Source: Coriobacteriia bacterium
GTDB taxonomy: Bacteria; Actinomycetota; Coriobacteriia; Coriobacteriales; Atopobiaceae
Length of the DNA: 37,933 nucleotides
Assembly (NCBI GenBank): GCA_030530145.1
Contig: JAUMVN010000006.1
Span: 1 to 37,933 of the forward strand
Direction: 5' to 3'
Numbering within the stretch: the stretch's first letter is position 1; each line of letters opens with the position of its first letter. The translations under genes and the position numbers were made by a program. The notes beneath the pieces are model-generated. The model did not search any database. It was not told where the DNA came from and saw only the letters and a list, made by a program, of their open reading frames with translations. Below, piece after piece: positions 17,931 through 34,887 of this stretch.

Positions 17931-19238
17931 CTACGAGGCTGTCCAAAGCCGATGGACGCCCATCGCATAAAGAGGGACGTTGCGCATCCAATCCTGCTCC
18001 CGATATCCCGAGAGCGAGAATCGCACAGCCGTTACCTCCGGATTCTTACTCTTAAAGGCGCGCAGGCTCTTTGCCTGCAGGTTCTCTTCCGCCTTGACCT
18101 CGATTGCGTGCGTTCGCCCATTATCTTGGATTAGAAAGTCGATCTCTCCAGAGGAATTCTCGGCAGACCAGTAGTAGGGCCTCATGCCGCAGTCCGAGAT
18201 GAGCTGTTGGCACACATACTGCTCGGCCAAGGCGCCCTTGAATTCCGTGAATACGACGTCCCCCTCAACAATGCTTGTCGGCTCGAGTCCACTCATCGCG
18301 CCGAGCAGGCCAACGTCAGAAAGAAACACTTTAAAAGCCTTGTGGTCGTCATAGGCCGAGAGCGGTACCCCCGGCTTCGTCACGCGCGGAACCTTATGGA
18401 TCAGTCCTGCCTGCGATAACCATACCAGCGCCTCCTCAAAGTCCTTCGCCCTCGCTCCTTCGCGCACGCGGCCGAACACGAACTTCTTGTTCTCATGCGA
18501 AAGGTGCGCGGGAATGGACTCCCAAACCTCCCGAACCCTTGCGTAAAGACGCATCGGAATGTGCTTCGAGAAGTCGCGCTCGTAATCCTGCAAAATCTGG
18601 CTCTGCAATCGGCGCGCGGCACGGCAGTCACCCGACTCGACAAACTCCTCCACCACAGCCGGCATTCCACCGACGACGCAGTAACGCCTAAGAGCCTCGA
18701 TAGATTTCTCCTTGAATGCATTCACGCTGACGGAATCCCCGGAATCGAGAAGCTCTCGGAGCATCCCGTCGCCTGTAGCGTCAAGAAACTCGCGGAAGCT
18801 CAAGGGATAGAGATCGAGGCAGTCGACCTTACCCACAGGGAAGCCCGAACCCTCTGCGGCCGAGATGCCCAACAGGGAACCAGCCGCAGAAACGGCGTAT
18901 TCAGGCGCCTCCTCACAAAAGTACTTGAGCGCCGTGATCGCCTTGGGCACAGACTGGACCTCGTCGAGAACAATAAGGGTGTTGCCGGGCTCTATGCGAA
19001 TATTCGTCAAAAGCGAAAGACCGTCGATGATTCGCCGAACATCAAAGTCAGAATCAAAGAGAGCACGCGCAGCGGTGTTGGAGTCGAGACTCACATACGC
19101 GAGCTTCTCGAACTGAGTGCGGCCGAACTCCTTGAGCAGCCACGTCTTGCCCACCTGACGCGCACCGTTAAGGACAAGGGGCTTGCGACGACGAGCGTCT
19201 CTCCATGCGACGAGGTCGTTCATGAGGTAACGGTCCAT
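17931..19238 (-). CDS. AAA ATPase with DUF4143 (PD-(D/E)xK-like) domain
   Basis: A 435-aa protein. The N-terminal ATPase has Walker A GARQVGKT (25-32) and Walker B LIVLDEVQ (88-95). The C-terminal DUF4143 region ends in a restriction-nuclease-like core, E365-x-D367...E380-x-K382 (GEIDFLIQ...IEVKA). The family is widespread and poorly understood; such proteins are often variable accessory genes. A paralogue at 31541-32878 keeps the motifs at the same residue positions. The gene starts at ATG 19238, 45 bp from a pair of 32-bp direct repeats. Its codons are less GC-ending than those of the flanking metabolic genes, consistent with acquisition. Confidence 0.88.
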   Translation of the reverse strand: MDRYLMNDLVAWRDARRRKPLVLNGARQVGKTWLLKEFGRTQFEKLAYVSLDSNTAARALFDSDFDVRRIIDGLSLLTNIRIEPGNTLIVLDEVQSVPKAITALKYFCEEAPEYAVSAAGSLLGISAAEGSGFPVGKVDCLDLYPLSFREFLDATGDGMLRELLDSGDSVSVNAFKEKSIEALRRYCVVGGMPAVVEEFVESGDCRAARRLQSQILQDYERDFSKHIPMRLYARVREVWESIPAHLSHENKKFVFGRVREGARAKDFEEALVWLSQAGLIHKVPRVTKPGVPLSAYDDHKAFKVFLSDVGLLGAMSGLEPTSIVEGDVVFTEFKGALAEQYVCQQLISDCGMRPYYWSAENSSGEIDFLIQDNGRTHAIEVKAEENLQAKSLRAFKSKNPEVTAVRFSLSGYREQDWMRNVPLYAMGVHRLWTAS

Positions 19239-28929: not shown

Positions 28930-29918
28930 CTACGCCGGAAACCAGATGCACCCGAGCGGCAGAATATTGCGCGTCTCTTCGTCAGCATTGGCGTAGTTCT
29001 CAACGTAAAGGCGCACGAAATCATCGATCATCGACCAAACGGATCGGCCGCGTCGCGCGCATGGCCTCGACCTTCGCATCCTTCGAAAAACCGCCGGTAG
29101 AAATATAGAGGCCGCGCTCATCTCCGTGTAGGCCAGCCATGAAGGAGCGGATTGCCGGTGCACCCATGGCACCCTTACGATGCTTGACCTCCGCCACCAC
29201 GAGCGGGTGCTCGAGGCCGAGGGCATCTAGCGAAGCCTCAACATCACGCCCGCCGTCGGGCCCGGGCCCCGTCACGCTGGCATGGTAACCCATAGCGCGG
29301 AGAAGACCTGCAGTCAGAGTTTCCATATCCGACCACGATAAACGTGTCACGCGATCCTTAATCGCCTCGATGCCGTCGTCAGGCAAGCTGTACTTCGGCA
29401 CCTCGGCTTCCACTAAGCCCCTGGCGGGCTCCACGGAGACTTGCGGCTTCTTCTTGCCCATTGCGACCTCGAGGTCCTCCATAACCTCATCGCTAATCGT
29501 AAAGACTGTAAGGATGCTGCCAAGAGAATTCCGGGACGCAAGGGGGGAGGTCGTCGCGCTTGGCGACGCCGCGCCAATTGACCTTGCGCCAATAAGTACG
29601 GCCGTCCGCATCTGGCGAGTACGTGCAGGGCCCGGCGATAATACCAATGTGATAAATCCGATCGGGCCCGTTGTACATAACGACAGTAGAGCCCTCAACA
29701 ACATCATGGCCAAAGTGAAAGACCTGGCTAGCCCCTGCGGCAAGTTTGCTCTTACTGAACGAAGGGGTGGTAGCAGAGTAGGAGTCGAAGATCTCCTCGT
29801 ACGTCATGGTGTCGATATTGCCAGTATTAATATCCCAACCTACGCCGATACAGCCTTTTTCGAACCAGTCTTCCGCATATACGCCATTGTGGCCAGCGCG
29901 AATCATCCAAGCTTTCAT
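28930..29918 (-). pseudogene. Mrr-like restriction endonuclease, broken by two frameshifts
   Basis: Three frames assemble into one Mrr-type enzyme. The N-terminal EVE-like domain (MKAWMIRAGHNGVYAEDWFEKG) runs in 29918-29493. The nuclease core (GPDGGRDVEA...VVAEVKHRKG) runs in the frame ending at 29021. The C-terminus (IDDFVRLYVENYANADEETRN) runs in a third frame ending at 28930. The first shift falls at a run of six G at about 29542-29547. The second coincides with a 7-bp tandem duplication (ATCATCG x2, 29020-29033); removing one copy restores the reading. Mrr enzymes cut modified DNA. It starts at ATG 29918 with a GAGGAGC site. It is either decayed, switchable by slippage, or affected by sequencing errors. 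Confidence 0.82.
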
Positions 29919-31540: not shown

Positions 31541-32878
31541 TTAAACCCTGACTACGAACGACTCCGGCAGCCTCTCCTGCTCCATGAACGAAACTGCATA
31601 CCAAGGAAGATACGTCACGCGACCGTCCTTCTCCACGTTCCCGCTGCACAAGACAACGGCTCGTTCAAGCCCCCACTCCTCAACGTCCATCAGATTGTCC
31701 AGGGCACGGTGAATCTTGAAGTCCGAGCCTGACTTCGCCTCCACGGGCAGGACAACCGAGCCGCGCTGCAGCACAAAATCGACCTCGCCGACCTTCGATT
31801 TGTCGTAGTAGGACAAGCTAAAGCCATGGGCAAGAAGCTCTTGCGCCACAACATTCTCGAGAAAAGACCCTTGGTTGATCGAGAGGTCGCCTTGAATGAT
31901 GTCGAACTGAACCGCGCCCACCGAAGCGGCGCTCAACAGCCCGCAGTCGCAGAGGAAAAGCTTAAACAGGTTGTGCTGCAGATTAATCTGCAGAGGCACG
32001 GTCGGCGCGCTCACGTTATAGCACGGCAAAGCGACGCCGGCGTCCGCCAGCCACATGAAGTCGCTCTCGTAGCGTTCCATCCGGGCGGTCTTGGCAAGGT
32101 CGCTCAGCTTGAAGCGACGGTTCTTCTTATCCAGCTGAGCCGGAATAGAGTCGAATATGGCGTTGACGTGCACTTTATTGGGCGCGTACTTAGACACATC
32201 TTGGCGGTAGAGGGTCAAGATGCCCCGCTGAACCTCCAACACGCGCGCCAGGTCGCCTGTGTCCACATAAGCCTGAACCGCAGCCGGCATACCGCCCACC
32301 GCCATGTAAATGCGGAAGGCCCTTATAAGGCGGTCGTTGATGGCGGGCAGGACCGGCTCCTGCGCCTCGCAGGCGCGACGTGCCTCGTCGAGAACCTCGG
32401 GCCGAATCCCGGCGGCCACTGCGAACTCGGCAAACGTGAGCGGGTAGGCGCGCAGTTCATCCTCGTACCCCACCGGGAGTGAGTCGACGTGCTGGTATGT
32501 CACGCCAAGAAGAGAACCGGACTCTACGTAGTCGAACCTGCCGTCGTCCACGAGGAACTTGATCGCCGTGCGCGCCCGGGGACACTCTTGAATCTCGTCA
32601 AAGAAAATCAGCGTCTTGCCGGGGATCAGCGCCGTCCCGGAATAAGCGGTCAGACCCAAGATGATCGCGGCCGCATCCAGGTCGCCCTCGAAGATGGACT
32701 TGGCGCCCGGTGTCTTGACGAAGTTGACCTCGAGAAACACCTCGTAGCATTCGGCGGCAAACTGCCTCACGGCAAAGGTCTTCCCGACCTGCCGGGCCCC
32801 GTCGATGAGAAGGGCCTTATGAGCTGGACGGTTTTTCCAGTCTTTAAGTTGCTGAAATAGTTTGCGCTGAATCGCCAC
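31541..32878 (-). CDS. AAA ATPase with DUF4143 (PD-(D/E)xK-like) domain
   Basis: A 445-aa relative of the ATPase at 17931-19238. Walker A is GARQVGKT (27-34), Walker B is LIFFDEIQ (90-97), and the C-terminal nuclease-like motif is E365-x-D367...E380-x-K382 (GEVDFVLQ...PVEAKSG), at the same residue numbers as in the paralogue. The sequences are otherwise well diverged, so they are two independent family members rather than a recent duplication. The start is GTG 32878 behind AGAGG. Four 33-bp repeats begin 41 bp upstream and overlap a possible promoter. The role is unknown; conflict or mobile-element association is likely. Confidence 0.88.
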   Translation of the reverse strand: MAIQRKLFQQLKDWKNRPAHKALLIDGARQVGKTFAVRQFAAECYEVFLEVNFVKTPGAKSIFEGDLDAAAIILGLTAYSGTALIPGKTLIFFDEIQECPRARTAIKFLVDDGRFDYVESGSLLGVTYQHVDSLPVGYEDELRAYPLTFAEFAVAAGIRPEVLDEARRACEAQEPVLPAINDRLIRAFRIYMAVGGMPAAVQAYVDTGDLARVLEVQRGILTLYRQDVSKYAPNKVHVNAIFDSIPAQLDKKNRRFKLSDLAKTARMERYESDFMWLADAGVALPCYNVSAPTVPLQINLQHNLFKLFLCDCGLLSAASVGAVQFDIIQGDLSINQGSFLENVVAQELLAHGFSLSYYDKSKVGEVDFVLQRGSVVLPVEAKSGSDFKIHRALDNLMDVEEWGLERAVVLCSGNVEKDGRVTYLPWYAVSFMEQERLPESFVVRV

Positions 32879-32918
32879 GATAATTCACCTCTGCATTTAG
32901 GCAGGTCAGAAGGTCGTT

Positions 32919-33050
32919 GCGACGTATTTTATCGTATTTAGACCGCACTCTGCGACGTGTTTCAACGGTTTTAGTACCTGTTTTGCGACGTATTTCGGCT
33001 GAATTTAAGGGCTTCCTGCGACGTATTTTCACGGTGAGCAACCAGCCCAC
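32919..33050. repeat. Four 33-bp phased direct repeats
   Basis: GCGACGTATTT or a one-base variant begins units at 32919, 32952, 32985 and 33018, each exactly 33 bp apart, with a weaker shared CGG and TTTA(G/A) further along. On the minus strand a TTGAAA/TCTAAA promoter-like pair with 17-bp spacing (32965-32937) lies across units 1 and 2. The array ends 41 bp before the DUF4143 ATPase start. The remainder of 32879-33227 contains a terminator and a pyrimidine tract but no gene. Confidence 0.8.
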
Positions 33051-33227: not shown

Positions 33228-34700
33228 CTACAGGATCTCCCACCAACCCGTGCGGGGACTGCCAACGCGCCGGATCAGCCCTGCGTCGCGCAGCGCGGCG
33301 ATATACCGGGCCACGGTCGCCGTGGAAACACCTAGCTCCTTGGCCATTCTCGACTGCGTCATCGACGGGTCCTCGCGTAACAGCGTCAGAACCGATGCAG
33401 ATGAAACCTGCCCCGGCTCCGCCGAAACGATTTCGGGCTCCGAATCCGAAGCCGCAAACCCAGCGTGGCAGTGCAGAGTTGTCAAGAAGTACAGGCGGTC
33501 GTCGTCGGTCTCAAAGAGCGGGTCGGGTGAACCGTTGTTTCTCATTGAGCGGAGGATTTTTGAGATGCCTGTGTTTCTACCCTCGGTGAGACGCAGCTCC
33601 TTAAGAAAGTCACCCACCCGGCGGTTACGGTACCGGCGAGAAATGGCCCTGTACGTGCGCAGACCTTCACGGCTGATGGAACGATCTGCCCCGGGATAGC
33701 TCAGGATCTCGATTCTGTCGGGCAGCACGCGGACCTCGACCGGCTCGCGGACGTCATACCCCTTGTGATACACGGCATTGGCCAAAGCCTCCTCGACGGC
33801 CCCGAACGGGTAGTTGAAGAACCTGAGCGACTCCGCCTTATCGCCCCTTTTGACGATTGTCTCCTTGATAACGGAGTTCTGTAGATACCGCAGGGCGTCG
33901 CGAAGCTGCTGGTCAAGAGGCCCGATGAACGTGCTTTCGATGATTCTGTCCCCGCCAAGCCCCTCCGGGAACTCCACGACGTCGATCTGCGCGCAAGGGA
34001 AGAAGCGTCTCGGGTCGTCAGAGAAGAAGAGAAGGCCGACGTTCTTCGGCTTGAGGTACTCATCCGGCCCCGCCACGATATCCATCCTGCGGCAAAGGTC
34101 CTTAAACGGCAGAGAGTCTGCCTCCGTATACAGGTCGCTCCCCACCTCCCTGAGAAATGACTTGATCAGCGTAGGGTTCAAATCCTCAAGCACGGCAGCA
34201 TGGTTAGGCCTGTCATCAAAGGGCACGTTGTTCGCTAAGGTATAGAGATCGCGCAGTTCCTCGCCGCTCGGCTCGATCGTGCTCGCGAGTTTGCGGATGT
34301 AGCACACCCGGGCCTTCTCGCCCTTGGACATGGAGCGCGGGCAGGAATAGGGGCGCACACTTCCTCCGGGACACCAGGCGATGATCAGCTGTTTCCCTTC
34401 GAATTCGGCGACGTCGACGATCGGCATGTAGTCTGGCGAGATGCGCTTGCAGCCGTTAAGCATGTCTTTGAGGATTCGGTCGACCGCCGCCGGACCGACA
34501 CCGACGACTTCACGCGAGCCGTCCTCATTCTCGCACACACCGATGATGAGGTAACCGCCGCCCCAGTTATCCAGATCATTCGCGAAGGCGCAGATGGTCT
34601 TGAGCGAGGCGGCAGCGTCCCAAGTCTCCTTGAGCTCAATACGCGCATTCTCGATAACTCCGCCCTTAAGCAGGGATTCTGCGCTGATAGGAATAGCCAT
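33228..34700 (-). CDS. AlbA_2 / HATPase_c_4 / winged-helix protein
   Basis: A 490-aa protein with three parts. Residues 10-135 form an AlbA_2 (Schlafen-type) domain: RIELKETWDAAASLKTICAFAND and GGGYLIIGVCEN. Residues about 270-390 form a GHKL-like ATPase region with NYPFGAVEEALANAVYHKGYD and the closing DRIEILSYPG and GRNTGI motifs. Residues 430-490 form a winged helix (MTQSRMAKELGVSTATVARYIAALRDAGLI). Such proteins are predicted regulators or defence-linked ATPases. ATG 34700 is chosen for its GGGAGC site; the frame upstream reads through a repeat tract (Asp/Asn-rich) and is not protein-like. It has a near-perfect promoter at 34740-34768. Confidence 0.87.
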   Translation of the reverse strand: MAIPISAESLLKGGVIENARIELKETWDAAASLKTICAFANDLDNWGGGYLIIGVCENEDGSREVVGVGPAAVDRILKDMLNGCKRISPDYMPIVDVAEFEGKQLIIAWCPGGSVRPYSCPRSMSKGEKARVCYIRKLASTIEPSGEELRDLYTLANNVPFDDRPNHAAVLEDLNPTLIKSFLREVGSDLYTEADSLPFKDLCRRMDIVAGPDEYLKPKNVGLLFFSDDPRRFFPCAQIDVVEFPEGLGGDRIIESTFIGPLDQQLRDALRYLQNSVIKETIVKRGDKAESLRFFNYPFGAVEEALANAVYHKGYDVREPVEVRVLPDRIEILSYPGADRSISREGLRTYRAISRRYRNRRVGDFLKELRLTEGRNTGISKILRSMRNNGSPDPLFETDDDRLYFLTTLHCHAGFAASDSEPEIVSAEPGQVSSASVLTLLREDPSMTQSRMAKELGVSTATVARYIAALRDAGLIRRVGSPRTGWWEIL

Positions 34701-34739
34701 CGATGCTCCCAATCGCTCGCTGGTTTTATCATTATCGTC

Positions 34740-34768
34740 ATTATAATCATTATCATCATCACTATCAA
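34740..34768 (-). promoter_or_regulatory. Consensus promoter with trinucleotide-repeat spacer
   Basis: On the minus strand TTGATA (34768-34763) is followed after 17 bp by a perfect TATAAT (34745-34740). The spacer is built of ATG/ATA triplets, continuing the AT-rich tract around it. Predicted transcription begins about 30 nt before the AlbA_2 ATG at 34700. Confidence 0.8.
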
Positions 34769-34887
34769 GGTGATAACAAACCGTGGCCAACGTACGGCCG
34801 AGTTATGCCCCGCACAACGACCTCGACGCCCGGCCGCGCCCCCGCCGCGTTACAGTAATACGAACAACCCTCACCGGAAGGACCCCC

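What the first reader, a model, noticed from the sequence alone, without database searches (positions are those of the whole stretch)
32919..33050. Four 33-bp helically phased repeats upstream of a DUF4143 ATPase
The core GCGACGTATTT recurs with exact 33-bp spacing at 32919, 32952, 32985 and 33018, about three DNA turns, next to the ATPase start and over a possible promoter. The rest of each unit has diverged, so the spacing is kept while the sequence is not, as expected of iteron-like protein sites. The period is also 11 codons; on the plus strand the units read LRRI or LRRV plus seven residues, so a coding origin cannot be dismissed.
Basis: seen in the sequence. Interest (0 to 1): 0.66.

Follow-up and report, generated by a model that had tools for sequence, protein, structure and literature searches.

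The report
Class-specific operator arrays of PDC-S01 ATPases
The evenly spaced repeats in front of this ATPase gene are real and recur, with the same 33-bp spacing but different letters, in front of related candidate phage-defence ATPases across bacteria and at least one archaeon, which suggests that each ATPase reads its own private switch.

Summary
The four 33-bp-spaced repeats are real; no shuffle of the region matches them (0/2000). They are not a local curiosity. Of 89 non-redundant homologues of the adjacent AAA_14-DUF4143 ATPase, about 78 have 33 or 32 bp as the strongest period before the start codon, in seven bacterial phyla; an archaeal paralogue has such an array too. PADLOC calls the ATPase PDC-S01, a very common phage-defence candidate without known mechanism. 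Between orthologues the 12-14 nt core and the spacing are kept while the 20 nt between cores diverge, so the array is not coding. The core's sequence follows the protein, not the host; paralogues in one genome have different cores. Spacing is set by protein class: GARQxGKT ATPases have 32-34 bp, GPKWCGKT ATPases 23 bp, about one helical turn less; the labels split on one branch of the protein tree. Arrays overlap or abut likely promoters, have no conserved partner gene, and often form one module with the ATPase. The window motif occurs nowhere else in its genome. Best reading: the array is the ATPase's own operator, bound head-to-tail, one protomer per repeat, to autoregulate a nuclease-fused AAA+ ATPase. 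Binding and repression are inferred, not shown.

The parts
33017..33028 (-). repeat core 1 (distal to the gene), AAATACGTCGCA in gene orientation
32984..32995 (-). repeat core 2, AAATACGTCGCA
32951..32962 (-). repeat core 3, AAACACGTCGCA
32918..32929 (-). repeat core 4 (proximal, ends 39 bp before the start codon), AAATACGTCGCA
32918..33028 (-). whole array: four cores at exact 33-bp spacing; the about 20 nt between cores are not conserved
32937..32965 (-). possible promoter of the ATPase, TTGAAA-17-TCTAAA, its -35 overlapping core 3 (weak match; similar placement in relatives L009 and L010)
   Evidence: inference
31541..32878 (-). AAA_14-DUF4143 ATPase, PADLOC family PDC-S01: AAA+ core (about 1-155), helical lid, winged helix (about 233-311), PD-(D/E)XK-like nuclease fold (about 312-431)

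Best explanation
The array is the ATPase's own operator. Each 12-14 bp asymmetric core binds one protomer, and equal spacing of about three helical turns puts the protomers on one face of the DNA, where they assemble head-to-tail and cover the promoter, keeping a nuclease-fused AAA+ ATPase at low level. Paralogues have drifted to private motifs, so each copy reads only its own switch. The ruler is built into the protein: GARQxGKT-class ATPases use 32-34 bp, GPKWCGKT-class ATPases use 23 bp, about one helical turn less. Shown: array, spacing classes, core conservation, motif-protein tracking, promoter overlap by sequence match, module boundaries, uniqueness in the genome. Inferred: that the ATPase itself binds, that binding represses, and that a phage or other signal releases it.
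For: Best period 33 in 63.5 and 32 in 14.2 of 89 non-redundant homologue upstreams; 69 of 89 score at or above 28, against about 2% of control pieces and 13 of 351 upstreams of other ORFs. Of the 4 control hits at 23, 32 or 33 bp, 3 turned out to precede other AAA_14 ATPases. Spacing tally in 68 class-A arrays: 33 bp 130 times, 32 bp 17, 34 bp 6. Class A: 79 of 81 arrays at 32-34 bp; class B: 32 of 35 at 23 bp plus one each at 24, 46 and 33. The spacing label needs one change on a 115-protein tree, SH-aLRT 98, 0/500 shuffles. Orthologues at 70-80% identity mostly keep cores at 75-100% while spacers fall to 20-60%. Motif similarity tracks protein identity, Spearman 0.61, 0/500 permutations; same-genome paralogues have unrelated motifs, and close proteins in different phyla often share motifs. 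In most Bacteroidales loci a -7 box TAnnTTTG begins at the end of a repeat core, inside the array; in L044 and L047 the -10 ends 2 bp before repeat 1. No conserved neighbour gene. Motif unique to the array in the genome; in G071 only two extra single hits, equal to the control. The model has a winged helix and resembles archaeal AAA+ ATPases 2qen and 2fna.
Against: No binding or expression data exist. About a fifth of class-A homologues show no clear array, including two class-A paralogues in this genome, L118 and L119; L124 is weak. The promoter in the window is a weak match. Motif similarity correlates better with the AAA domain than with the winged helix (partial rank correlation 0.43 against -0.04), so which part reads the DNA is open. 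Constant orientation of the motif would also fit an RNA-level role where the array is transcribed. Choosing the best 12-mer as register inflates within-array core identity.
Confidence: 0.68

Rival explanations
1. The array is bound by the ATPase but mainly as a scaffold: it holds or nucleates the AAA+ oligomer (storage, priming or safety catch for the nuclease), and regulation of transcription is secondary.
For: Arrays of 3-6 head-to-tail copies exceed what simple repression needs; strict spacing by protein class; AAA+/STAND-like fold, a group that oligomerises.
Against: The array touches the promoter in many loci and lies close before the start codon in nearly all, which is where an operator belongs; nothing shows assembly.
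Confidence: 0.17
2. The repeats act in the mRNA: a transcribed 5' leader bound by the ATPase or processed by its nuclease domain.
For: In L044 and L047 a strong promoter match lies just upstream of repeat 1, so the whole array would be transcribed.
Against: In most Bacteroidales loci the -7 box lies inside the array, so most repeats would lie upstream of the transcript start; exact spacing near whole helical turns is a DNA property.
Confidence: 0.07
3. A separate host regulator, not the ATPase, binds the array.
For: The binding partner is not identified; the genome encodes other regulators.
Against: Motif follows the ATPase across phyla and differs among paralogues in one genome; spacing follows ATPase class; motif absent elsewhere in the genome; no conserved neighbour.
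Confidence: 0.05
4. Coding or simple tandem-duplication relic (11-codon repeat).
For: 33 bp is 11 codons; a few more 33-bp arrays have an open frame than expected (74 against 65 of 76).
Against: 32-, 34- and 23-bp arrays break the frame; spacers diverge to near-random between orthologues while cores stay.
Confidence: 0.02

Closest known systems
PDC-S01 (PADLOC phage-defence candidate; PMC12988326)
   Same: The ATPase hits PDC-S01 models at E 1e-163; ATPase fused to a PD-(D/E)XK fold as described in PMC12988326.
   Different: No repeat array or regulation found described in the open-licence papers held.
Iterons and DnaA-box arrays of replication origins (general knowledge)
   Same: Short asymmetric direct repeats, same orientation, spaced near whole helical turns beside the gene of an AAA+ or winged-helix protein.
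   Different: Mostly chromosomal, no conserved replication gene nearby, motif private to each paralogue.
Plasmid partition centromeres such as parC (general knowledge)
   Same: Direct-repeat array upstream of an ATPase gene, overlapping its promoter, likely autoregulatory.
   Different: Single gene with no adaptor or partner; the ATPase carries a nuclease-like domain.
Archaeal AAA+ ATPases 2qen (PABY2304) and 2fna (SSO1545)
   Same: Best structural matches over residues 1-320, Z 17.0 (rmsd 4.2, 266 aligned) and 15.8 (rmsd 4.3, 267 aligned).
   Different: The C-terminal PD-(D/E)XK-like part lies outside the alignment; whether those genes carry arrays was not tested.

Membership tests
PDC-S01 / AAA_14-DUF4143 ATPase | Profile match over the whole protein | tested here: met
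   PDLC04792 1.2e-163 over 3-437; AAA_14 2e-23 and DUF4143 8e-29 above cut-offs
PDC-S01 / AAA_14-DUF4143 ATPase | Walker A/B and PD-(D/E)XK residues kept | tested here: met
   Invariant G27, G32, K33, D94, E95, E341, E365, E380, K382; D367 nearly invariant; the nuclease reading of these residues is inference
PDC-S01 / AAA_14-DUF4143 ATPase | Defends against phage | not testable with these tools
   No assay; [quoted passage not shown]
Iteron array (plasmid replication) | Equally spaced direct repeats near whole helical turns | tested here: met
Iteron array (plasmid replication) | Conserved replication initiator gene adjacent | tested here: not met
   No conserved neighbouring gene family
CRISPR array | Long near-identical repeats with cas genes | tested here: not met
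   Core only 12-14 nt; no conserved neighbour
Partition centromere (parC type) | ATPase gene with a conserved DNA-binding adaptor gene | tested here: not met
   No conserved neighbour
Autoregulatory operator | Overlaps the promoter of the gene it precedes | tested here: inconclusive
   Sequence matches to promoters in many loci, weak in the window
Autoregulatory operator | Product of the gene binds it | not testable with these tools
   Needs EMSA or footprinting

The most novel reading that the evidence does not exclude
PDC-S01 ATPases carry a built-in, class-specific DNA ruler: each copy polymerises on its own private repeat array, which both silences it and keeps the nuclease machine assembled but inactive until an invader disturbs it; paralogues evolve orthogonal addresses, giving each genome a set of independently wired sentinels.
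Probability: 0.2. Interest if true: 0.92.

Novelty: new variant of a known kind. Interest (0 to 1): 0.8.

Why it matters
PDC-S01 is reported as the fourth most common defence system in prokaryotes (29,494 bacterial and 9,986 archaeal copies in PMC12988326), and I found no described mechanism. A conserved cis element with a protein-class-specific spacing gives a directly testable handle: what the protein binds, how its subunits are spaced, how it is silenced, and why many paralogues can coexist in one genome (37 DUF4143 matches in G041). It also offers many apparently orthogonal protein-operator pairs for study of how DNA specificity evolves.

Tried and rejected
Exact-motif search in the family found only this genome, which first suggested a private oddity; searching by spacing instead of letters changed that. 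A mono-nucleotide shuffle exaggerated open frames in the arrays; a core-preserving shuffle brought the excess down to 74 against 65. Search for arrays on viral contigs with one Bacteroidales motif found none, though ATPase homologues in the viral collection carry their own arrays. Winged-helix divergence as the cause of motif divergence was not supported; the AAA domain correlates better, exploratory only. Paper searches for the Pfam, COG and PADLOC names with repeats found no description; one search was noise because AAA14 matches unrelated text. One control upstream with a 23-bp array (L103, metallophosphatase) is unexplained.

Full report
Observation. The periodicity is not reached by any of 2000 shuffles of the 300-bp upstream region, and the motif occurs nowhere else in the 2.47-Mb genome. 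The gene downstream, read leftwards from a GTG at 32878, is an AAA_14-DUF4143 ATPase.

From letters to spacing. The exact letters are private: among 140 genomes of the family only this one holds them twice at this spacing. I therefore searched for spacing. I took homologues of the ATPase from whole genomes and from the GTDB contigs, oriented them, and scored every period from 18 to 70 bp in the 300 bp before the start codon. In 89 non-redundant upstreams, 33 bp was best in 63.5 and 32 bp in 14.2 (ties split); 69 scored at or above 28, against about 2% of random pieces of the same loci and 13 of 351 upstreams of other ORFs. Of the four control hits at 23, 32 or 33 bp, three precede other AAA_14 ATPases, so the criterion nearly picks the gene family by itself. 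The hosts span Actinomycetota, Bacillota, Bacteroidota, Desulfovibrio, Spirochaetota, Gammaproteobacteria and Fibrobacterota. A paralogue in a Thermoplasmata genome carries a near-perfect 33-bp array (L248). Homologues on viral-collection contigs and some on plasmids carry arrays too.

Anatomy. Arrays have 3-6 detected copies (the method needs three), lie just before the start codon, and consist of an asymmetric 12-14 nt core plus about 20 nt of unrelated DNA. In 68 non-redundant arrays spacings are 33 (130), 32 (17) and 34 (6). Orthologues with 70-80% identical proteins mostly keep cores at 75-100% but spacers at 20-60%. Frames are broken in 32- and 34-bp arrays, and open frames in 33-bp arrays exceed a core-preserving shuffle only slightly (74 against 65). 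I reject a coding origin.

Motif follows protein. Motif similarity rises with protein identity (Spearman 0.61, 0 of 500 permutations). Related proteins in different phyla share motifs, e.g. AAAAACGTTACA in Bacillota and GAAAAACGTTAC in Desulfovibrio, while same-phylum pairs under 45% identity do not. Paralogues inside one genome have unrelated motifs unless the proteins are close.

Spacing follows protein class. Among DUF4143 paralogues, ATPases with a GARQxGKT-type Walker A have 32-34 bp arrays (79 of 81) and those with GPKWCGKT-type have 23 bp (32 of 35, plus one 24, one 46, one 33). On a tree of 115 proteins the label changes once (SH-aLRT 98, 0 of 500 shuffles; a quick tree of about 160 columns). 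The two rulers differ by 10 bp, about one helical turn. Class B includes two paralogues in the window's own genome (L120, L123). Short-form ATPases (GPRQSGKT, or MYIxRxIE start) mostly have none.

Promoters. In most Bacteroidales loci the -7 box TAnnTTTG begins at the end of a repeat core, inside the array; in L044 and L047 a strong -10 match ends 2 bp before repeat 1; in the window and its two nearest relatives a weaker -35 match overlaps a core. Position relative to the promoter varies, but in these loci the array touches it.

Module. No neighbouring gene family recurs. In several pairs with different flanks, DNA homology begins at or near repeat 1 and ends near the stop codon: L009/L010 at -94 where the array starts at -94; L073/L105 at -83 where one array starts at -83; L114/L116 at -112; L040/L041 at -102 with the array at -99. 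Array plus ATPase behaves as one unit.

Protein. The model (pLDDT 91.6) shows AAA+, lid, winged helix and a PD-(D/E)XK-like domain; the best solved matches are archaeal AAA+ ATPases 2qen and 2fna, then CED-4 and NLR proteins. Class B has the same order of elements (pLDDT 93.6). PADLOC calls both PDC-S01, reported as the fourth most common defence system across prokaryotes, with validation pending for most such candidates.

Mechanism. The simplest reading is an autoregulatory operator read by the ATPase itself, one protomer per repeat on one DNA face. Shown: array, conservation, tracking, class rulers, promoter contact by sequence match, uniqueness. Inferred: binding, repression, release by a signal. 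The part that reads DNA is open; the AAA domain correlates with the motif better than the winged helix (exploratory, pairs not independent).

Limits. About a fifth of class-A homologues show no clear array, and some window-genome paralogues lack one. Literature coverage is open-licence PMC only, so a published description elsewhere cannot be excluded.

Noticed in passing
window 18090-18581 (minus strand; locus L118): A second DUF4143 ATPase lies in the same window, class A by its Walker A, but without a detectable array.
   Followed up: partly
window 29021-29918 (minus strand): Two overlapping ORFs match the two halves of PDC-S02 / Mrr-type restriction endonuclease models: the gene looks frameshifted in this assembly.
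   Followed up: no
L086:8321-9526, L094:7383-8585: AAA_14 ATPases without DUF4143 (weak nSTAND_NTPase5) also carry 33- or 32-bp arrays, so the arrangement reaches beyond PDC-S01.
   Followed up: partly
L103 upstream of 3514: A 23-bp array precedes a metallophosphatase gene next to a DUF4143 ATPase; unexplained.
   Followed up: no
L028, L030, L285: Some class-A relatives show 42-45 bp periods, perhaps a four-turn ruler or irregular arrays.
   Followed up: no
G041 (whole genome): 37 DUF4143 domain matches in one 3.2-Mb genome.
   Followed up: partly
L040/L041, L098/L101, L080/L085: Flanking blocks are shuffled around the array-plus-gene unit, with homology breaking near the first repeat and the stop codon, as if cassettes move as units.
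   Followed up: partly
window 33228-34790 (minus strand): Schlafen/AlbA_2-type protein with a C-terminal helix-turn-helix lies upstream of the array.
   Followed up: no
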